Virus record (IMG/VR): IMGVR_UViG_3300021960_000414
Coordinates: 1-27,067 of that record
DNA length: 27,067 bases
Source: a virus
Strand: one strand, 5' to 3'
Positions within the stretch are counted from its first letter, which is position 1; every line of letters starts with the position of its first letter. The notes beneath the pieces were generated by a model. It saw nothing but the letters and a program-made list of their open reading frames with translations, searched no databases and had not been told where the DNA came from. Both the position numbers and the translations under genes were made by a program. Shown one piece after another: positions 1-25,667 of the stretch.

Positions 1-470
1 TAGCTAAACACAAGCACGTTACAGTAAAAAACATTATTGGAAATCATGATGACATGTCAAGTATTTTTCTTAGTATTGCAATGTCAAAATATTTTAGAAA
101 TGAACCAAGAGTAACTGTTGATACTTCGCCATCTAAATTTTGGTACTATCAATTTGGTAAAGTTTTATTAGGTAGTACGCATGGTGATACAGCAAAGCCT
201 GAAAAGCTACCGTTAATTATGGCAACAGACAAACCTCAAGAGTGGGCGATGTCAGACTTTAGATACTGGTTTACTGGTCACATCCATAATAAACAAGCTA
301 TGGAGTTCTCAGGGTGTATGTGGGAATCGTTTCGTACTCTTGCTGGAAGTGATGCTTGGCATGCTGGAGCTGGCTATCGGTCTGGAAAAGATTTAAGCTG
401 CGTTTTACTTCATAAAGACTTTGGAGAAATAGGTAGAAATACAGCGTCTTTAAAAATGGTGAGAAGTTAA
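1..470 (+). CDS. calcineurin-like metallophosphoesterase, 5' truncated
   Basis: Probable metal-dependent phosphoesterase. The reading frame is open from base 3, so the gene begins outside the window and the ATG at 54 is internal. This matters because the GNHD metal-binding motif is encoded at 39-50, before that ATG. Two further family motifs follow: HGD at 180-188 and GHIH at 276-287, the usual C-terminal metal ligands. The N-terminal DxH and GDxxD motifs are missing only because of the window edge. No signal peptide can be judged. Its TAA directly abuts the ATG of the next gene, so the two are probably co-transcribed. Phages often carry such enzymes, possibly acting on nucleotides or nucleic acid ends; the substrate here is unknown. 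The family call is confident, the role is not. Confidence 0.85.
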   Translation, partial: AKHKHVTVKNIIGNHDDMSSIFLSIAMSKYFRNEPRVTVDTSPSKFWYYQFGKVLLGSTHGDTAKPEKLPLIMATDKPQEWAMSDFRYWFTGHIHNKQAMEFSGCMWESFRTLAGSDAWHAGAGYRSGKDLSCVLLHKDFGEIGRNTASLKMVRS

Positions 471-849: not shown

Positions 850-2016
850 CTATTTTGCAGCTATTTTTACGTCAGATTCTGGGTTTATTAGGCTTGCAAA
901 TTTATCGCCAGCTTCAGGAGCATCTTCATCAATAAATCTAGCATAGGTTCTATAAGTAAAACCAGCATCTTTATGACCCATTTGTTTTGACACCCAGCCT
1001 ATATTCTCACCAGATGTTATAGCAAGAGAAGCAAATGTGTGTCTTGTTTGATAAGGATAACGATACCTTACTTCTGCTCTTCTCAATATAGGAGTCCAAG
1101 CAGTTTTACGAATAGCTTGGTCGCCCTTCCATGGTTCATTCAGTCTTGGGTTATGAAATATCTCTTGGCCCTGAAGATAAGTGTATTGTTTCTGGTCTTT
1201 GAGTGTTTTTATTACCTCTTCAGATAACTTAACCCATCTATAACTGGTTGATGTTTTTGGAAGTCCAACTACTTTTGCAGCTTGAGTCATTGCCTTATTT
1301 ACTGACAATCTATTATTAGCCCAATCAATATCATTCCATGTAAGAGCTATGTACTCACTGATTCTTAATCCAGTAAAGAAAGCAAGAGTAAATAAATTAT
1401 GTATTTGACCATCACAAGAATTTAATATTAATCTTATTTCTTTAGTTGAGCATGGGTCTATTACTTCACTCTTATTACTTAGAAGTTTGCCTTTAAATTT
1501 TTTACCATACAAAGGATTAACTGAAATTAGCTCATCATCTACAGCTTCATCTAAGGCTTGATTTAATAAAGTAAGTTTGTTTGATAGAGTCTTAGTTGTA
1601 TTGGATTGTTTCTTTATCCATTTTTTAATATCTAACCATTTAAGCTCTGCTATTGGATATTTGCCAAATTCTGGTATTAACTGATTGTATATTATGTTAG
1701 TGTTATTTTTTAAAGAAGAATCAGCGTAATTATGTTTATGTCCTTCATACCATTCAGAAAGATATTGTTTTACTTTAATTGCTGATGTAGGATTAAATAA
1801 AAACCTTTTTTCATCTTTAGGAAATGTTGTAGCGTAATCAAAAGTGCCATCTTCTATAGCATCTAAAATTCTACGTCTAAATTTAAGTGCAGCTTTTAGG
1901 TTAGCTTCAGTGGGTTCACCCCGAACTCTTGGCCTACATCTTTGTTCTTGGTAGATGAAACTAATTTCGATACTGCTTTTACTGATTCCACGAACTCCTG
2001 TCCTTTTCTTACCCAT
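850..2016 (-). CDS. int: tyrosine recombinase (phage integrase)
   Basis: Catalyses site-specific integration at attP/attB. Residues 7-60 resemble the DUF3596 (Arm_DNA-bind_2) domain, with GVR, ISF-Y and RCR-PT--NLKAA signatures. A core-binding domain lies at about 75-165 and the catalytic domain at about 185-370. Catalytic residues visible: R218 (TGLRISE), K254 (PKTSTSYR hairpin), the Y322-Q-T-R325-H box with Tyr in place of the more usual first His (normal in this subfamily), H348 of GH, and nucleophile Y358. The 388-aa length is typical. The start at 2016 is needed to keep the arm-binding domain intact, although it lies 121 bases inside the excisionase-like gene. The gene reads toward attP and stops next to the right arm repeats. 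Confidence 0.95.
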   Translation of the reverse strand: MGKKRTGVRGISKSSIEISFIYQEQRCRPRVRGEPTEANLKAALKFRRRILDAIEDGTFDYATTFPKDEKRFLFNPTSAIKVKQYLSEWYEGHKHNYADSSLKNNTNIIYNQLIPEFGKYPIAELKWLDIKKWIKKQSNTTKTLSNKLTLLNQALDEAVDDELISVNPLYGKKFKGKLLSNKSEVIDPCSTKEIRLILNSCDGQIHNLFTLAFFTGLRISEYIALTWNDIDWANNRLSVNKAMTQAAKVVGLPKTSTSYRWVKLSEEVIKTLKDQKQYTYLQGQEIFHNPRLNEPWKGDQAIRKTAWTPILRRAEVRYRYPYQTRHTFASLAITSGENIGWVSKQMGHKDAGFTYRTYARFIDEDAPEAGDKFASLINPESDVKIAAK

Positions 2017-5530: not shown

Positions 5531-5545
5531 GTAAAATTAATTTGT
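5531..5545. promoter_or_regulatory. candidate operator at the repressor 3' end (GTAAA-N5-TTTGT)
   Basis: Fits the RCAAA-N5-TTTGY dyad with one mismatch. It overlaps the last codons of the repressor gene and is upstream of the 118-aa gene. Immediately beside it (5516-5532) is a related dyad with a longer spacer (ACAAA-N7-ATTGT). Together they could control the 118-aa gene. Confidence 0.3.
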
Positions 5546-5962
5546 ATGTCCTACAAAAACCTTATTAACTTGGCCCACAATCTCAGCTCCTTTAGGAACA
5601 AACAACGGTTCATTCTTTTTTATTTTAACAAGATGATAGTCGTAATTTGGGTCAGGCTTGACAGGAGTATCGACTGATACTATAGATATGTGTTGTTGTA
5701 TATGTATTACGTTAGGCTCTTCTTCACCTTTAACAAGATACTCAATTGACGTTCCTAAAGATTCAGCAAGCTCATTAATGTAACGTGGCATTTTTATCTT
5801 ATCGTTTTCACAGAACTGAATGTTTTGATATGTCACTCCAGCCATGTTAGCTAAGTCTGTTTGTGTCCACCCTTTTTTATTTCTAAGGTCTCTAACTCTT
5901 TGACCTAACGATGAATTTTGTATATCTGTATCTTTATTTTTTAATTTAGTTTTGTCAGTCAT
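5537..5962 (-). CDS. CI-like phage repressor, XRE-type helix-turn-helix
   Basis: 141-aa probable lysogeny repressor. Residues 20-75 form an XRE/Cro-C1 helix-turn-helix (LGQRVRDLRNKKGWTQTDLA, then GVTYQNIQFCEN, then AESLGTSIEYLVKG). The rest (to residue 141) is short and has no visible S24/LexA-type Ser-Lys self-cleavage module. The gene is divergent from the Cro-like gene with a shared intergenic control region, the classical switch layout. The ATG at 5962 is preferred over the adjacent GTG since AAGG lies eight bases upstream. Lacking the cleavage domain, it may be induced by an antirepressor or other route rather than RecA. Confidence 0.8.
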   Translation of the reverse strand: MTDKTKLKNKDTDIQNSSLGQRVRDLRNKKGWTQTDLANMAGVTYQNIQFCENDKIKMPRYINELAESLGTSIEYLVKGEEEPNVIHIQQHISIVSVDTPVKPDPNYDYHLVKIKKNEPLFVPKGAEIVGQVNKVFVGHTN

Positions 5963-5992
5963 CACTTATACCTTATAATTTGGTCTAAAATC

Positions 5993-18490: not shown

Positions 18491-21232
18491 ATGGCATTTG
18501 AACAATACAAATTTACTCAGACTAGGCAAGTACAGCCAGCCGATATGAGTGAAGCTCGTGTTTGGGAGACCCTAGCCAATACTATGGATAGGTTCGCAGC
18601 TCAAATGGGGTCTATTAATAATGCAAATGCAGCTAGGGCTAAAGGTGTTAGAAATGCTCAAGACTCATTAGATGGCATGCAAGCTGGAACAATTGCTGGC
18701 AGTGAAGGCCCTTTAGAATTTATGGATGCTGGTATTCCGTTTAATGACGCATACAATAGAGGCATACTTGCTTCTTATGAAGCTGGCATAACTAATCAAA
18801 TTGAAGATACGCTTTCTACTGCTTTACAAAATTATCCGTTAGACCCTGATGGTTTTGCTACTGAGGCTTTAGCTTTAGATAAAGTTTTAACTGAAGGTAA
18901 GTCTGATTATGAGACAGCTTTAATAAGAAATACATTAGAGCGAATTTCTAAGAAAGCACAAATTAAAATTAATGGCAATGTTCAAGTTAAAGTTAAGGAA
19001 GGTCAAGTAGCTGAAATTGCTACAGCTAACAGTAACAATATTACAGAAATGGAAGACATGGCATATCTCGGTGAGCCTATCGATGAAGTCATGGCAAATT
19101 ACAAAATAAGAAATCAAAATGCAGTCGATGCTGGATTAATCAGTGCTGCTTCTTTTGCAGAACAACAATCTTTATTAGAAGATAAGTTACAACTTAGAAT
19201 AACAGAAGGTGCATTTGACAGGTTGTTAGAAACTGATGGTATTGCAGCAGCAAACTCAGCATTACAAGAATATAAAGATGACCCAACAAGTATAGACGCA
19301 CCATTAGCTCAAAATCAAAAACTTATAAATGAGTTAGACCGTAAAGTAACTAATAGCCAAGCAACAGCTAAAATTGCAGTAGAGTCAGCAATAAAAGAAT
19401 TTGAAGCTGGCAACTCTGACCTTGATATTACAGCATTACTAGGAACAGTCAAAGGTACATCATTAGAAGCACCACTTGTAAATGCACAAGCTATTTCAGT
19501 AGACTCAGATGCGTTTAAAGGTTACAACTTTATTCAAATGGATAAAGCAGAGCAAAATGCTCAAAAACTTCCAGAAGGTACTGTTAAAGAAGCATTGCTT
19601 AATAATTATGCTGAAATACGCAAGCATACTAAAGAGATGTTAGATAAAGACCCATACGCTTTAGCATTAGAAACTGGTGTTGTAAGTGGTAGTCGTTTTG
19701 ATTTATCAGACCCTAAAACTTTACAAGCCAGAATAGCAGAAGCAGAAGCAGCTTCTCAATTCTATGGCGTTAAAGTTCCTCCAATGTCTCAAGCTGAAGC
19801 AGATGGCTTACGCTATATTATTAATGAAGGCAATATAGATGACAACATGCTTGTTTTTCAACAACTTGGAACTGGATTTGGTTCTCAAACAGATGAAGTC
19901 TACAAGCTAATGTTTAAAGAGGGTGGTGGGGCTTTTGCTGTTGCTAGTGGCATGATGTTACAAGGTGATGAAGCAACAACTCAATTAATATTAAAAGGTC
20001 AAGACTTAATTAAAAATGACATTTATCCTGACATAGTTAAAGTTACAGATAAAGATATGCCAACAATAAATGCAGCTATTGATACTGTATTTGATAATGC
20101 TTATTTAGAAACACCAAATCATGTTGAAGTTTTAAGAGGCGGTATTAAAGCTGTTTATGCTCAGTATATGGCTGAGAGTGGAAACTATTCTAGTGCTGAA
20201 GGTCATGACCCTAAACTTTTACAACAAGCAATAGATAAAGTTACAGGTGGAATTGTTGAGTTAGAGTGGAATGAGTCATCAGGACTGATAGGAGCATTCA
20301 CTGACGAAGATTATTCAATAGAAGTACCTAGAGCTGGTATGGATGCAAAAGATGTTGAAAATTGGATGGAGTCTATTACAGCAAAAGACATTGACACTAT
20401 GGGTGGTGTTGCTGGCATGGAATCAGCTGAAGTTGCTATGATTATTAATGATGGTAGGGCTAAGTTACATTCGGTTGGTCATGGTCAATACACGCTTAGA
20501 AACATGACAGGAAATTGGTTTTCTTCAACTGATGCAAATGGAGAGCCTACAAAATTTGTCTTAACTTATGTTCCAGAACCAACAAGAGATAAAGAAGTTA
20601 AGGCTACTTTAGGTGGTGACATAGAACCAGCAGATACAATTGGAGAGCAAATATTAAACAGTATAGATGAAATAGAAGATGACCCAATAGATGACATGGA
20701 AGCTGACATTATTGGTGATGAAGGTTTTTTAAATTTAAGAGACCAAGCTGGTGAACTTGAAGAGCAGTTTCAAGGTGGAGCAACAGACACAACATCTTTT
20801 ATTAAAGCATTTGAGGGCCTAGAGTTAACAGCTTATTACGCTACACCAGCAGAGAAAAAGAAAGGTACAGTTTCAATAGGATATGGCTCAACAAGAAGAG
20901 CTAAAGAAGGTGAAACAATTACAGAAGCCCAAGCTGAAGCTTATCTTAAAGAAGATATAAAAGTAGCAGAACTAGCAATTAGTAAATTAGTTAAAGTTGA
21001 TTTAACGCCTCAACAACAAACAGCACTTACATCGCTTGTATTCAACATTGGAGCTGGAAACTTTAAAAGGTCTAAAGCTCTAAAAGAATTAAATAAAGGA
21101 AACATTGAAGGTTTCTTATTTGAAGCATTTGATTCTAAGCAAGGCTTTGTTAAGCAAGGTAACAAAATATTAAAAGGTCTTGTTAAAAGAAGAGCTAAAG
21201 AAAGAAAGTTATTTGAGAGTGGTACAGCCTAA
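18491..21232 (+). CDS. internal virion protein with C-terminal lysozyme-like domain
   Basis: 913-aa protein, probably ejected with the DNA and able to open peptidoglycan. About residues 1-760 are long helical, Ala/Asp/Glu-rich sequence as in T7 gp15/gp16-type core proteins. Residues about 768-913 match the T4-type/R21 lysozyme family (GH24): F774-E775-G-L, TVSIGYGST with catalytic-type Thr, TPQQQTALTSLVFNIGAGNF, and GLVKRRAKERKLF. The usual Asp nine residues after Glu is replaced by Ala in AYYATP, followed by an inserted Lys-rich loop. The start is at 18491 directly after the previous gene; an earlier in-frame start overlaps that gene without need. Confidence 0.85.
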   Translation: MAFEQYKFTQTRQVQPADMSEARVWETLANTMDRFAAQMGSINNANAARAKGVRNAQDSLDGMQAGTIAGSEGPLEFMDAGIPFNDAYNRGILASYEAGITNQIEDTLSTALQNYPLDPDGFATEALALDKVLTEGKSDYETALIRNTLERISKKAQIKINGNVQVKVKEGQVAEIATANSNNITEMEDMAYLGEPIDEVMANYKIRNQNAVDAGLISAASFAEQQSLLEDKLQLRITEGAFDRLLETDGIAAANSALQEYKDDPTSIDAPLAQNQKLINELDRKVTNSQATAKIAVESAIKEFEAGNSDLDITALLGTVKGTSLEAPLVNAQAISVDSDAFKGYNFIQMDKAEQNAQKLPEGTVKEALLNNYAEIRKHTKEMLDKDPYALALETGVVSGSRFDLSDPKTLQARIAEAEAASQFYGVKVPPMSQAEADGLRYIINEGNIDDNMLVFQQLGTGFGSQTDEVYKLMFKEGGGAFAVASGMMLQGDEATTQLILKGQDLIKNDIYPDIVKVTDKDMPTINAAIDTVFDNAYLETPNHVEVLRGGIKAVYAQYMAESGNYSSAEGHDPKLLQQAIDKVTGGIVELEWNESSGLIGAFTDEDYSIEVPRAGMDAKDVENWMESITAKDIDTMGGVAGMESAEVAMIINDGRAKLHSVGHGQYTLRNMTGNWFSSTDANGEPTKFVLTYVPEPTRDKEVKATLGGDIEPADTIGEQILNSIDEIEDDPIDDMEADIIGDEGFLNLRDQAGELEEQFQGGATDTTSFIKAFEGLELTAYYATPAEKKKGTVSIGYGSTRRAKEGETITEAQAEAYLKEDIKVAELAISKLVKVDLTPQQQTALTSLVFNIGAGNFKRSKALKELNKGNIEGFLFEAFDSKQGFVKQGNKILKGLVKRRAKERKLFESGTA

Positions 21233-23247
21233 TGATTAATTTTGACCAAGTAGGGCTTAAAAATAATACAGACAAAATATTAGCGTCTGCTGCTTCTGCT
21301 GAAACAGACAACATAGCTAATATGGGTGAAATGTTGTCAGCCAAACTTAGTTACATAATGAATGAAGATTTAGGTATTTCTAAATTTTTAAGCCAAACTG
21401 CTGGCAGAAGAGAACAGTTTCAAAAATTATATGATGTGACTGGTGATGAAAAATGGAAGACTAGTATTTTAAGTGAATTGTCAAATAACCTAACATATGA
21501 TAATGAGCTTGATTTAAGCCCAACAATAACTAAAAGAAATCAAGATTTGTACGAAGCGTCTGTTGATGAAATTAAAGCATTACAAAAAGAATACCCTAGT
21601 TTTAATATATTAACACCCGATGAGTTGACTGCATCAATTGCAGAAAGAGCAAGGCTAAATAGAGAAGAAGTATCTCGATTAGTAGCAAGGTCATCAAGTA
21701 ATGTTGATTTAGTTTCTAATATTGTCAGTATGGGTGCTTATTTTCTTGACCCAGTAGTTTTAGCTACGCTTCCTATTACTGGAGGAGCAAGTGTTGGTCG
21801 TGGAGTTGTAGGTAATGCATGGAGAAGTTTTAAAATTGAAACTGCTGTAGCTGGTGCTGCTGAAGTTGCAATCACTCCTCAAGTTGCAGAATATAAAAAA
21901 GAAATTAACAGCCCATTTACATTACAAGACGCAGCATTTAGAATTATTGGAGCATCAGCTGGAGCTGGAGTTATACGTGGAACTGGAAGTGTTGTCTTAG
22001 ATTCAGCACAATTATTCAAAGCATCAAGATTATTAAAGAAACAAGGCAAAGCAGAAGACGCTGCTGTAGTAGAGAATTATGCCAAAGTAGTAGATGGAGT
22101 AGAGCCTGAAGCACATAACGCTCACATTCAAGCATATCAAGCTGCTAGACAAGCATTAGAAGAAGGTCGTGTATTAGACAATGCTGAGATTGAACGTATC
22201 TACGCAGCTCATGATGTAGCTGTTCCAGAAGTGGTTAGAACATATCATGGTTCAAAAGCTAAATTCGATAAATTTGACCAAAGATATATGGGTTCAGGTG
22301 AAGGCAATCAAGCTTTTGGTTATGGACATTATGTTGCTGAAAGTAAAAGTGTAGCTCAAGGTTACAAAGAAAGAATTGGTGGTGGCAGAATGTTTCAAGC
22401 ACTAGAAATTAATGGTGAGTCAGCAGCACGTTATTTTGATGTAGATGAATTTGCAGAAGACACTTTAATAAAATTACATAGAAATGATGGAGATGTAAAA
22501 AAAGTTAAACGTCTTTTAAAAGAAGATAGTAAAGAAAATCCAATTAAAGGCTTGAGAGAGCGTGCAAAAAAACAACATACTTTTTTAACTAAATTTGCAA
22601 AAGAAAACAAAATTATATTTAAAGGCAAAGGTCAATTATATGAAATAGATGTTCCTCAATCATCTATCGACAAAATGATAGATTTAGATAAAACAATTGA
22701 CATGCAAAATCCTTATGTTAAAGACATTTTAGTAGACATAAGAAAAGAATTAGGTACAAGCTTTCAAAATGGCAAACGCGCTTATGAAGAAATTGTATTT
22801 GCTATGAAATTAAAAAATGTTAGAAATCCTGAAAAAGCTGCTAGTGAATATTTGTTAGAAAAAGGAATTAAAGGCAACAAGTATTTTGATGGTGATAGTA
22901 GAGCTGATAACACAGGTACGTCTAACTATGTGTTGTTTGACCCTGAAGATGCCATTATAGTTACAAGAAATGATGAGATTTTAAAACAAACACAGCCACG
23001 CAATGTTGAGCTTCGCTTAGATAAAGCAGAGCAAGATGACTTAGCTAAATCACAAATACAAGATGTCCAAGAAATGATAGATGCTGACGATGGTCTGTTT
23101 ATGGAAGTGCCTACATTTAAAACAGATGATGTAACTGGAGAGCTAGAAGTATCTACTAGGCCAGCTAAAGAAGTCTTTGAAGAAATAGACAATCAAGACA
23201 AAGCAATGGATGACATATTTTCTTGTGTTATGGGAGCAGCTGCGTAA
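21232..23247 (+). CDS. internal virion protein with ADP-ribosyltransferase domain
   Basis: 671-aa protein. Residues 1-330 are helical virion-core-like sequence with a hydrophobic Gly/Ala section (SMGAYFLDPVVLATLPITGG, 180-200). Residues about 337-575 match the ART-PolyVal type ADP-ribosyltransferase domain: Y338-H339-GSKAKFDKFD, GSGEGNQAFGYGHY367-VAES, GQLYEIDVP, then LEKGIKGNKYFDGDSR and SNYVLFDPEDAIIV near 564-577. These enzymes transfer ADP-ribose from NAD+. Sitting in the ejectosome cluster, the domain would enter the host with the genome. Its ATG overlaps the previous stop and its stop overlaps the next ATG, both TAATG. Catalytic residues are assigned by pattern only; targets unknown. 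Confidence 0.82.
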   Translation: MINFDQVGLKNNTDKILASAASAETDNIANMGEMLSAKLSYIMNEDLGISKFLSQTAGRREQFQKLYDVTGDEKWKTSILSELSNNLTYDNELDLSPTITKRNQDLYEASVDEIKALQKEYPSFNILTPDELTASIAERARLNREEVSRLVARSSSNVDLVSNIVSMGAYFLDPVVLATLPITGGASVGRGVVGNAWRSFKIETAVAGAAEVAITPQVAEYKKEINSPFTLQDAAFRIIGASAGAGVIRGTGSVVLDSAQLFKASRLLKKQGKAEDAAVVENYAKVVDGVEPEAHNAHIQAYQAARQALEEGRVLDNAEIERIYAAHDVAVPEVVRTYHGSKAKFDKFDQRYMGSGEGNQAFGYGHYVAESKSVAQGYKERIGGGRMFQALEINGESAARYFDVDEFAEDTLIKLHRNDGDVKKVKRLLKEDSKENPIKGLRERAKKQHTFLTKFAKENKIIFKGKGQLYEIDVPQSSIDKMIDLDKTIDMQNPYVKDILVDIRKELGTSFQNGKRAYEEIVFAMKLKNVRNPEKAASEYLLEKGIKGNKYFDGDSRADNTGTSNYVLFDPEDAIIVTRNDEILKQTQPRNVELRLDKAEQDDLAKSQIQDVQEMIDADDGLFMEVPTFKTDDVTGELEVSTRPAKEVFEEIDNQDKAMDDIFSCVMGAAA

Positions 23248-25667
23248 TGGATAAGTGTATATCACAAGCATTAGACGCTGGAAAAATTTCTAAAGAAGTG
23301 GCTCAAGAGTTAGAAAAAAATATTGATATGTTTGTTGAACACATGAATACAGGTGTTGGTGTTAACTCAAGAGCTGCAAGAAAGCACGCTATTAAAAAGA
23401 CATTAGAGCAAAAGAAAATACAGCTGGCTAAAGATAAAGCAAGAGCAGCAAGCAATGCTTTAAAAAGAGCTGACAATTTGAGACAAGTTAATGCTCACGA
23501 AGATAGTAAAGCAATGGGCCTTATTACAATGTTAGTTAAAGACTTAAAAGGTAGAGTGGCTTCTGACAATGTTTACTACAAAGCTAGAGGTTTAGTTGGT
23601 GGCTTCCATTCTCAAATTGCTGATGTAATGAATGACCTTAGAACTAAAAAAGCTGGTCTTACACAAGATACAGAATTAGCTAGAAATACAGTTTTAGAAA
23701 TTCAAGGCAAAAGCACTGGTGATGCTGTAGCTAAAAAACATGCACAATCAGTTACTAAGATGTTTGACTCAGTAAGAGAAATGTCAAATGCAGCTGGTTC
23801 AGATATTAAAAGATTAGACAATTGGTTTCCACACAAATGGAATGCTGAAAGAACAGCAGCTATTTCAAAAGAAGATTGGGTTGAAGAAATGTTTCCTTTA
23901 ATGGATAGAGCTAAGATGAAAAATGACTTAGAGCTTCCACTAAATGATACTGAGCTACGTGATTTGTTAGCAGCTTCTTATGACACTATTACTACTAATG
24001 GCATGAATAAGATAGAAGCTGGAACTATGGGTAAAAGGTCATTTGCTAATAGACATCAAGAACATCGAGTTTTGTTATTTAAAGACCCAGATATGTGGAT
24101 GAAGGTTAATGATAAGTATGGTGAAAATAACTTTTATACGACTATAACAGACCACATAGAAAGCATGTCTTTAGAAATTGCTTTACTTGAAAAGATGGGT
24201 ACTAATCCTGAAGTTGAATTTAGATACTTTATGGACTTAGCAAGAGCAGAAGAAAAGATACGTAACAGAGGTAAAGTAAAATTTAAAGATGGTTTAGACA
24301 CAGGTTTTGCAGAAGCTATTTGGAGCGTTACAACTGGAAAAGTAAATCAAGCTGGTCAGCCATGGTTAGGACTTAAATTACAACAAGCTAGGGCAATTCA
24401 AGTAGCAACTGATTTAGGAAGTGCTATGTTGTCTTCTATTGCTGACTTACCTTCTGTAGCTATAACTGCTAAATTTAATGGCTTGCCAGTATCTAGGGTT
24501 ATGAAAAAAGCTGTCAAGGTTATGGCTTTAAATAAACAAAAAGTTCAAGCTATTAGAATGGGCTTAGTTGCTGATGCTTTTACTTCAAGAGCTGGTGGTG
24601 CAAATCGTTTTGCAGATATTAATGGTGAAGATTGGACAACTACAGCTGCTGATTTTACATTACGAGCTTCAGGGTTAGCACCTTGGACAGATTCATTAAG
24701 AACAGCATACGGAATGGTTGCATTTGAAATGATTGCTGATATGTCTTCTAAATCTTATGCTCAACTTCCAAAAAGTTTTAAAGCTGGTTTAAAGCGTTAC
24801 GATATTAGTCCTGAAGATTGGGATGTTATACGTGACACAGGTATGGCAAAGTTTGAAGGTGAAAATTATTTTGCTTTAACTAATATGACAGATAGAACTG
24901 ATATTAGTGCTGATGTTGCAAACAAATTAAACGCTAAAGTTCAAAGAATGATTAACACTGAAACAGATTACGCTGTGTTAATGCCTGATGACAGAATGAG
25001 AGCAATTGTGACAGGTGGTCGTGCTAAAGGTACAGCTGGTGGTGAAATATTTAGGAATGTTTTTATGTACAAAACTTTTCCCATGTTAGTTATTGCTAAT
25101 CACCTTTATAGAGGTTTTACACAAGAAGGTTTGAAATCAAGAGTTTCATATTTAGCACAATTAACTGTTGGCTCAATTATCTTTGGTGCAATGGCACTAC
25201 AACTTAAAGATTTAAGTAGAGGTCGTGAGTTAAGAGATATGTCTACTAAAGAATTTTGGGGAGCAGCATATATGCAAGGTGGTGGTGCTGGAATTTATGG
25301 TGACTTTTTGTTTGAAGACCAAAACAGATATGGTGGTGGTTTATGGCAAACATTAGCGAGTCCTATGATTGGAACTATTGAGGACTTACTGAAATTAACA
25401 GTGGGTCAGGTACAAGAAATGTCACAAGGAAAAGACACAAACGTAGGCAGAGATATAAGTGAATTTGTCTCAAGACACACACCAGTAGCTTCATCTCTTT
25501 GGTACACCAGAGCTTTACTTGAGCATGGTTTGTTTGAAACTTTACAAAAAATGATAGACCCTAAAGCACAAAAAAGCTGGAAAAGAAAGATGAAATCTAG
25601 GAAGAAAAACTATGACCAAGGGTATTGGTGGAAGATGGGAGAACTTACTCCTGAATTTATGCAATGA
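23247..25667 (+). CDS. large internal virion protein (gp16-like position)
   Basis: 806-aa helical protein, last of the ejection set. The N-terminus has a short motif KCISQALDAGKISKEVAQEL and a long basic, Lys/Ala-rich helix (about 30-90). The middle contains NWFPHKWNAERTAA, and the C-terminal half has hydrophobic segments (SYLAQLTVGSIIFGAMALQL, about 630-655) and a Lys/Arg-rich end. It has no lysozyme domain; that is in the 913-aa protein. The start at 23247 overlaps the upstream stop; a TTG at 23223 is not credible. It may be the C-terminal half of what is a single giant protein in related phages. Confidence 0.75.
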   Translation: MDKCISQALDAGKISKEVAQELEKNIDMFVEHMNTGVGVNSRAARKHAIKKTLEQKKIQLAKDKARAASNALKRADNLRQVNAHEDSKAMGLITMLVKDLKGRVASDNVYYKARGLVGGFHSQIADVMNDLRTKKAGLTQDTELARNTVLEIQGKSTGDAVAKKHAQSVTKMFDSVREMSNAAGSDIKRLDNWFPHKWNAERTAAISKEDWVEEMFPLMDRAKMKNDLELPLNDTELRDLLAASYDTITTNGMNKIEAGTMGKRSFANRHQEHRVLLFKDPDMWMKVNDKYGENNFYTTITDHIESMSLEIALLEKMGTNPEVEFRYFMDLARAEEKIRNRGKVKFKDGLDTGFAEAIWSVTTGKVNQAGQPWLGLKLQQARAIQVATDLGSAMLSSIADLPSVAITAKFNGLPVSRVMKKAVKVMALNKQKVQAIRMGLVADAFTSRAGGANRFADINGEDWTTTAADFTLRASGLAPWTDSLRTAYGMVAFEMIADMSSKSYAQLPKSFKAGLKRYDISPEDWDVIRDTGMAKFEGENYFALTNMTDRTDISADVANKLNAKVQRMINTETDYAVLMPDDRMRAIVTGGRAKGTAGGEIFRNVFMYKTFPMLVIANHLYRGFTQEGLKSRVSYLAQLTVGSIIFGAMALQLKDLSRGRELRDMSTKEFWGAAYMQGGGAGIYGDFLFEDQNRYGGGLWQTLASPMIGTIEDLLKLTVGQVQEMSQGKDTNVGRDISEFVSRHTPVASSLWYTRALLEHGLFETLQKMIDPKAQKSWKRKMKSRKKNYDQGYWWKMGELTPEFMQ

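What the first reader, a model, noticed from the sequence alone, without database searches (positions are those of the whole stretch)
21232..23247. ADP-ribosyltransferase domain built into a probable ejected virion protein
Residues about 337-575 show the full ART-PolyVal-like pattern (YHGS, GEGNQAFGYGHYVAES, LYEIDVP, GIKGNKYFDG, NYVLFDP) inside a protein in the T7 gp14-gp15-gp16-type ejection cluster. If ejected, the enzyme could modify host proteins, nucleic acids or NAD+-dependent defences at the moment of DNA entry, before any phage gene is expressed, comparable in timing to T4 Alt.
Basis: partly seen in the sequence, partly recalled or inferred. Interest (0 to 1): 0.75.

Follow-up and report, generated by a model that had tools for sequence, protein, structure and literature searches.

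The report
Swappable enzyme inside phage ejection protein
A marine temperate phage carries an ADP-ribosyltransferase-fold enzyme in an interchangeable middle slot of a protein that is probably packed in the virion and ejected with the DNA; related phages fill the same slot with other enzymes, which suggests a general way of delivering effectors at the moment of infection.

Summary
In detail: residues ~335-583 of the 671-aa protein (window 21232-23247) form an ADP-ribosyltransferase (ART) domain. Profiles built without the window's clade, an AlphaFold model and its fold matches agree. Two corrections: the residue in the place of the catalytic Glu is an invariant Asn (N565; 74/74 relatives), and the gene cluster is of epsilon15/phiV10 gp13-gp17 type rather than strictly T7 type. 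The protein sits at the epsilon15 gp16 position and shares an N-terminal core and a Cys-ending C-terminal tail with gp16-position proteins of many phages. Between them lies a variable slot: ART here, elsewhere Zeta-toxin-type kinase, RelA/SpoT, ddrB-ParB, lysozyme or a BECR-type nuclease. Phages whose gp17 is 99-100% identical to the window's carry an ART allele only 41-48% identical over most of the domain, so the ART is exchanged as a cassette. Best explanation: a virion-packed carrier with swappable cargo acting right after entry; packaging, ejection and activity are inferred. Virion-packed ARTs are an established prediction (Iyer 2017), and an ART-like domain appears in the solved cyanophage A4 pre-ejectosome. 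Hence: new variant of a known kind; the less familiar part is the fixed carrier with exchangeable cargo.

The parts
21232..23247 (+). epsilon15 gp16-type ejection protein carrying an ART domain, 671 aa
   Evidence: ORF; TAATG overlaps with both neighbours; between gp15-like and gp17-like genes
21544..22179 (+). conserved helical N-core (residues ~105-316)
   Evidence: iterative HMM started from the window protein matches 78 of 83 gp16-position proteins, including phiV10 gp16; full-length model predicts helices
22231..22980 (+). ART domain (residues ~334-583): H339, Y367, N565
23032..23244 (+). conserved C-terminal tail (residues ~601-671) with near-terminal Cys665
   Evidence: tail HMM built without the window clade hits the window at E ~1e-12 in a 3-sequence search; Cys in the last 15 residues in 83/83 gp16 proteins against 47/575 other proteins
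23247..25667 (+). gp17-like ejection/virion protein (phrog_684); ATG at 23247 in the ORF listed as 23223-25667
   Evidence: phrog_684 E 7e-183; 114 phage records
18443..21232 (+). gp15-like ejection protein with C-terminal lysozyme; relatives begin at the Met near 18491
   Evidence: position; Phage_lysozyme PF00959 E 3.6e-32; alignment
20804..21202 (+). lysozyme domain of the gp15-like protein, absent in relative L001
18067..18489 (+). small internal virion protein (phrog_418)
   Evidence: phrog_418 E 9e-14

Best explanation
The gene encodes an epsilon15 gp16-type ejection protein whose conserved N-core and C-tail let it be packed with gp15 and gp17 inside the capsid and ejected at infection. 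The ART domain is cargo held between them. Once across the envelope it would use host NAD+ to modify a host macromolecule (protein or nucleic acid) before any phage gene is expressed, favouring take-over or blunting a defence. The cargo is exchanged between phages as a cassette, as expected of an effector under target-driven selection. Shown here: the ART domain and predicted fold, the gp16 position, the shared core and tail, the exchange of cargo, and cassette-like divergence of the ART. Inferred: packing in the virion, arrival in the cytoplasm, NAD+ chemistry and the target.
For: ART domain: (198 bits, window clade excluded). Cluster: phrog_418, gp15-like with lysozyme, this gene, phrog_684 in that order, as in phiV10 and SPN1S, with TAATG-coupled junctions. 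Carrier: N-core in 78/83 gp16-position proteins and 55/73 prophage ones; tail in 83/83 and in 1 of 575 control C-termini, that one being the overlooked gp16 of L016. Slot: relative L111 shares 39.5% identity over 296 N-terminal residues and the tail but carries a Zeta_toxin domain instead; RelA_SpoT, ddrB-ParB, lysozyme, PBECR and further ARTs occur elsewhere. Cassette exchange: window against L002: gp17 99-100% nt, tail 99-100%, ART 60-63% nt and 41-48% aa over residues ~361-534 with a ~60-aa length difference; against L001 most of gp15-gp17 is ~75-90% nt but the ART 91-95%. Precedent: the best PDB match of the ART model is a chain of the cyanophage A4 pre-ejectosome.
Against: No virion proteomics and no activity data. 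The catalytic Glu position is Asn, which might impair transferase activity or change the reaction. Direct profile comparison of the core with phiV10 gp16 is modest (prob 67%, E 5e-5). The full-length model is of low confidence (pLDDT 56), so the relation of ART to core and tail is unknown. A review assigns the ordered epsilon15 core to gp17 alone (PMC5850374), so packaging of gp16 there is less firm.
Confidence: 0.6

Rival explanations
1. The ART fold is a catalytically dead or purely structural domain of the ejection protein (for example a plug or binding module).
For: Asn instead of Glu at the strand-5 position; an ART-fold domain is part of an assembled pre-ejectosome in cyanophage A4, which could be structural.
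Against: Motif residues H339, Y367, N565, D553 and S556 stay conserved in 72-74 of 74 relatives at about 30% identity, unlike a scaffold; gp16 proteins exist with almost no cargo or with unrelated enzymes, so the fold is not needed for assembly.
Confidence: 0.2
2. The domain is an NADase (NAD+ glycohydrolase): on entry it drains NAD+, or competes with NAD+-dependent defences, rather than transferring ADP-ribose to a macromolecule.
For: H-Y-type ARTs include NADases (PMC9503650); loss of the catalytic acid could favour hydrolysis (inference).
Against: Draining NAD+ at entry would be expected to harm phage replication (inference); the common viral ARTs of this clade are mostly assigned to macromolecule modification (PMC9503650).
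Confidence: 0.13
3. It is an antibacterial or lysogen-benefit toxin of the MuF type (like Bxa), delivered by particles into competitors rather than serving infection.
For: The phage is temperate (integrase and HTH regulator); Bxa and Apk2 are capsid-linked prophage toxins (PMC11699363).
Against: No room for an immunity gene between gp16 and its neighbours (TAATG overlaps on both sides), and no ADP-ribosylhydrolase or macro domain among the ten other window proteins scanned; the same slot carries wall-degrading enzymes and ParB domains, which suit infection.
Confidence: 0.07

Closest known systems
Polyvalent proteins with ART domains (Iyer et al. 2017, PMC5512222)
   Same: H-Y-type ART in a phage protein predicted to be packed and injected; ddrB-ParB, PBECR, RelA/SpoT and ART cargos overlap with those found here.
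   Different: Here a single ART in a 671-aa protein with a dedicated ejection-protein core and tail; strand-5 residue Asn, not the reported Asp; the paper's main text does not mention epsilon15 or phiV10.
Cyanophage A4 pre-ejectosome protein (PDB 9k3a chain B; Hou et al. 2025 PNAS, paper not held)
   Same: ART-fold domain inside a virion-packed ejection protein (Z 11.2, rmsd 4.8, 151 residues); in the A-4L protein A4L_27 the sequence holds YHGT and GSGTYFS.
   Different: 1717-aa protein of a different phage family and host; very weak sequence similarity of the ART; activity unknown to me.
Epsilon15/phiV10 gp16 (phrog_1145)
   Same: Gene position, shared core and tail.
   Different: phiV10 gp16 has no recognised enzyme in the slot.
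Phage T4 Alt
   Same: Virion-packed ART injected with the DNA (established knowledge; PMC5512222).
   Different: R-S-E clade, separate protein rather than part of an ejection protein; no close relationship claimed.
MuF-ART Bxa of a Bacteroides prophage (PMC11699363)
   Same: Structural phage protein with an interchangeable C-terminal toxin, ART included.
   Different: MuF carrier, immunity genes, Glu active site; cargo at the C-terminus, not between a core and a tail.

Membership tests
ART superfamily, H-Y clade | ART fold | tested here: met
   AlphaFold2 pLDDT 81; best matches ART folds: 9k3a_B Z 11.2, diphtheria toxin, tankyrase and ParT Z ~7.5-8; BFVD ART-PolyVal-like proteins down to E 2e-16
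ART superfamily, H-Y clade | His in strand 1 and Tyr in strand 2 | tested here: met
   H339 72/74, Y367 74/74; both in predicted strands
ART superfamily, H-Y clade | Glu, Asp or Gln as third active-site residue (strand 5) | tested here: inconclusive
   Asn565 at the start of the predicted strand, invariant in 74/74, by motif alignment only; D553 nearby is also invariant and could be the functional acid; atom positions were not available to me
Pfam ART-PolyVal PF18760 | Score above the curated gathering cut-off | tested here: not met
   26.6 against 31.2 bits, first half only; gp16-position proteins L239 and L201 do pass
Polyvalent proteins (Iyer 2017) | Two or more unrelated effector domains in one polypeptide | tested here: not met
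   Only one enzymatic domain recognised in the 671 aa
Polyvalent proteins (Iyer 2017) | Packed in the virion and injected | not testable with these tools
   Inferred from gene position and carrier homology only
Epsilon15 gp16-type ejection proteins | Gene directly upstream of a gp17 (phrog_684) homologue and downstream of a gp15-like gene | tested here: met
Epsilon15 gp16-type ejection proteins | Shared N-core | tested here: met
   iterative HMM 78/83 including phiV10 gp16; direct profile-profile comparison modest, prob 67%
Epsilon15 gp16-type ejection proteins | Conserved C-tail with near-terminal Cys | tested here: met
Epsilon15 gp16-type ejection proteins | Presence in virions | not testable with these tools
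   needs proteomics
T4 Alt/VIP2 clade | R-S-E active site | tested here: not met
   The domain has His, Tyr and Asn at the motif positions
T7 gp16 | Homology to T7 gp16 | not tested
   No T7 ejection-protein family was reported for this protein, but no direct comparison was made

The most novel reading that the evidence does not exclude
Epsilon15 gp16-type ejection proteins are a general polymorphic effector-delivery system: one carrier (fixed N-core and C-tail, the tail acting as packing or docking signal) with a slot into which phages and prophages exchange enzymes (ART, Zeta-type kinase, RelA/SpoT, ParB, nucleases, wall hydrolases) to act in the host at the moment of DNA entry. The window's ART, with an unusual His-Tyr-Asn site, is one such cargo, swapped between otherwise near-identical phages.
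Probability: 0.5. Interest if true: 0.75.

Novelty: new variant of a known kind. Interest (0 to 1): 0.55.

Why it matters
If the carrier model holds, the conserved core and tail become a search key for unknown early phage effectors in short-tailed phages, and the conserved tail could be tested as a packing signal. It also offers a concrete case in which effector alleles are swapped inside an otherwise near-identical ejection apparatus, which makes the question of what these enzymes do at entry directly testable.

Tried and rejected
T7-type cluster as sole description: rejected in favour of epsilon15/phiV10 gp13-gp17. Sequence search of solved structures with the ART profile gave only chance hits (gp41 constructs) and weak Cholix matches below significance; the whole protein gave nothing. 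PDB search with the full-length model was uninformative because the model is poor. Searches with the N-terminal or gp17 alignments of the window clade found only the same three IMG/VR contigs; a diverse gp17 alignment was needed. My first ART HMM missed the divergent ARTs in gp16 proteins L201 and L239, which Pfam found; 'no other ART in the slot' was therefore withdrawn. L240 carries an ART-like motif in the slot but no Pfam hit, so it is not counted. None of the other top ART loci in IMG/VR holds the gp17, core or tail signature, so most phage ARTs of this subfamily sit in other proteins. An immunity gene next to the ART was considered and not found. The cyanophage A4 paper is not held.

Full report
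What is there. The window is a 27,067-base virus record from a temperate short-tailed phage: tyrosine integrase at 850-2016(-), HTH regulator at 5537-5965(-), Sak annealing protein, then terminase, a T7-type portal and scaffold, a Phage_capsid_2 coat protein, tail proteins and the ejection genes. The gene in question, 21232-23247(+), begins on the stop codon of the gene before it and ends on the start codon of the gene after it (TAATG at both places), as expected in a tightly coupled operon.

The ART domain is real. All quoted motifs are present at the stated residues. An HMM built from 71 other phage ART domains, leaving out the window's own clade, scores 198 bits over residues 335-582. Pfam's ART-PolyVal model gives E 1.1e-5 but stays below its gathering score, so I call it an H-Y-type ART close to, but not formally inside, PF18760. 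AlphaFold2 with 74 sequences gives pLDDT 81; the strands hold YHGS, GHYVA, LYEIDVP, GNKYF and SNYVL. VIA-align puts the cyanophage A4 pre-ejectosome chain first (Z 11.2, rmsd 4.8, 151 residues), followed by diphtheria toxin, tankyrase and ParT at Z about 8. Z near 8 alone would not be decisive, but BFVD returns named ART-PolyVal-like phage proteins with E down to 2e-16.

Active site. H339 (72/74), Y367 (74/74), D553 (74/74), S556 (74/74) and N565 (74/74) are conserved among relatives at about 30% identity. N565 starts the strand that in PARP-type ARTs starts with the catalytic Glu (my alignment by motif; established knowledge of PARP1 E988). In the gp16-position ART of L239 the same place reads EFVVFSP. 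Iyer et al. report H-Y-D for ARTs of polyvalent proteins (PMC5512222); whether D553 or the N565 position is the residue they mean I could not settle. Activity is likely given the conservation, but is not shown.

The carrier. The downstream gene is a phrog_684 protein (E 7e-183), with relatives in 114 phage records; the order phrog_418, gp15-like, this gene, phrog_684 matches phiV10 and SPN1S, relatives of epsilon15. From a diverse gp17 alignment I fetched 80 IMG/VR loci and 80 bacterial-genome loci and took the gene directly upstream of gp17. An iterative HMM started from the window's residues 1-336 finds a core (window 105-316) in 78 of 83 virus and reference proteins, phiV10 gp16 included, and in 55 of 73 prophage ones. 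A C-terminal tail of about 45-70 residues ending in a near-terminal Cys is shared by all 83; an HMM trained without the window clade recognises the window's tail. Of 575 other C-termini from the same loci only one matches, and that one appears to be the true gp16 of L016 that my gene-picking had missed. A Cys lies in the last 15 residues of 83/83 gp16 proteins against 47/575 controls. The tail HMM is trained on the proteins it matches, so the left-out test and the controls carry the weight; in the more distant prophage proteins the tail HMM reaches significance in only 21 of 73. Direct comparison of the window-type core with the phiV10-type profile is modest (67%).

The slot. Between core and tail lie 51 to 1341 residues (the one value of 0 is a truncated fragment). 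In 50 virus proteins Pfam finds Zeta_toxin in 18, RelA_SpoT in 5, DUF7178 in 2; in 54 prophage proteins ddrB-ParB in 14, Phage_lysozyme2 in 7, and single cases of SLT, VanY, Zeta_toxin, ART-PolyVal, PBECR1 and PBECR3. In the individually scanned proteins the matches lie between core and tail. L111 is the clearest pair with the window: 39.5% identity over 296 N-terminal residues, same kind of tail, Zeta_toxin instead of ART. ARTs of other subfamilies sit in the slot in L201 (Rhodomicrobium) and L239 (Caldimonas), so ART cargo was probably recruited more than once. None of the other top-scoring IMG/VR ART loci has this carrier.

Cassette exchange. Between the window and L002, gp17 is 99-100% and the gp16 tail 99-100% identical in nucleotides, while the ART region is 60-63% (41-48% aa) and the L002 allele is about 60 residues shorter; the active-site motifs remain. 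Between the window and L001 most of the ejection genes are about 75-90% identical, but the ART 91-95%. L001 lacks the lysozyme that the window carries at the end of its gp15-like protein. These patterns fit recombination of cargo modules; three related contigs cannot exclude very uneven rates, but the near-identical flanks make that less likely.

Mechanism. Epsilon15 and T7-type core proteins are packed above the portal and ejected to build a channel through the envelope (PMC5850374, PMC8954989). I infer that the gp16-type protein travels with them, that core and tail serve assembly and packing, and that the ART acts in the new host. The target is unknown. Rivals are a structural or dead ART, an NADase, and a MuF-like antibacterial toxin; the last lacks an adjacent immunity gene.

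Novelty. Injected ARTs were predicted in 2017 (polyvalent proteins), about 44% of phage ARTs lie in head-packaging contexts (PMC9503650), swapping of lysozyme between ejection proteins is known (PMC8954989), and an ART-like domain seems to be in the cyanophage A4 pre-ejectosome structure. The exchangeable slot of epsilon15 gp16-type proteins was not found in the papers searched, a limited, open-access library. I therefore rate it a new variant of a known kind.

Noticed in passing
L111:3729-6887, L110, L107, L127, L161 (gp16-position proteins): Zeta_toxin-type kinase domains (PF06414, E down to 7e-40) in the cargo slot of gp16-type ejection proteins; 18 of 50 virus proteins scanned.
   Followed up: partly
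L150:4476-6986, L177, L178 and relatives: RelA/SpoT alarmone-synthetase domains in the same slot; L177 also shows a sub-threshold ART-PolyVal match after it.
   Followed up: partly
window 20804-21202: The lysozyme domain at the end of the gp15-like protein is absent in relative L001; a second swappable module in the same cluster.
   Followed up: partly
L263:20116-25269(-), Anabaena phage A-4L gene A4L_27: Annotated 'tail protein' with an unannotated YHGT/GSGTYFS ART-like region; fold match of PDB chain 9k3a_B residues 1418-1604 to the window's ART. I assume that this gene encodes that chain.
   Followed up: partly
L004:4537-10461, Caudoviricetes sp. vir555 (Methanomicrobiales): A 1974-aa protein near a phrog_418 gene holds an ART of the window's subfamily and a metallopeptidase-like HEIGH motif; a polyvalent-type protein assigned to an archaeal host.
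   Followed up: no
C-termini of gp16-type proteins; window residue C665: A near-terminal Cys is conserved in 83/83 gp16-type proteins; role unknown.
   Followed up: partly
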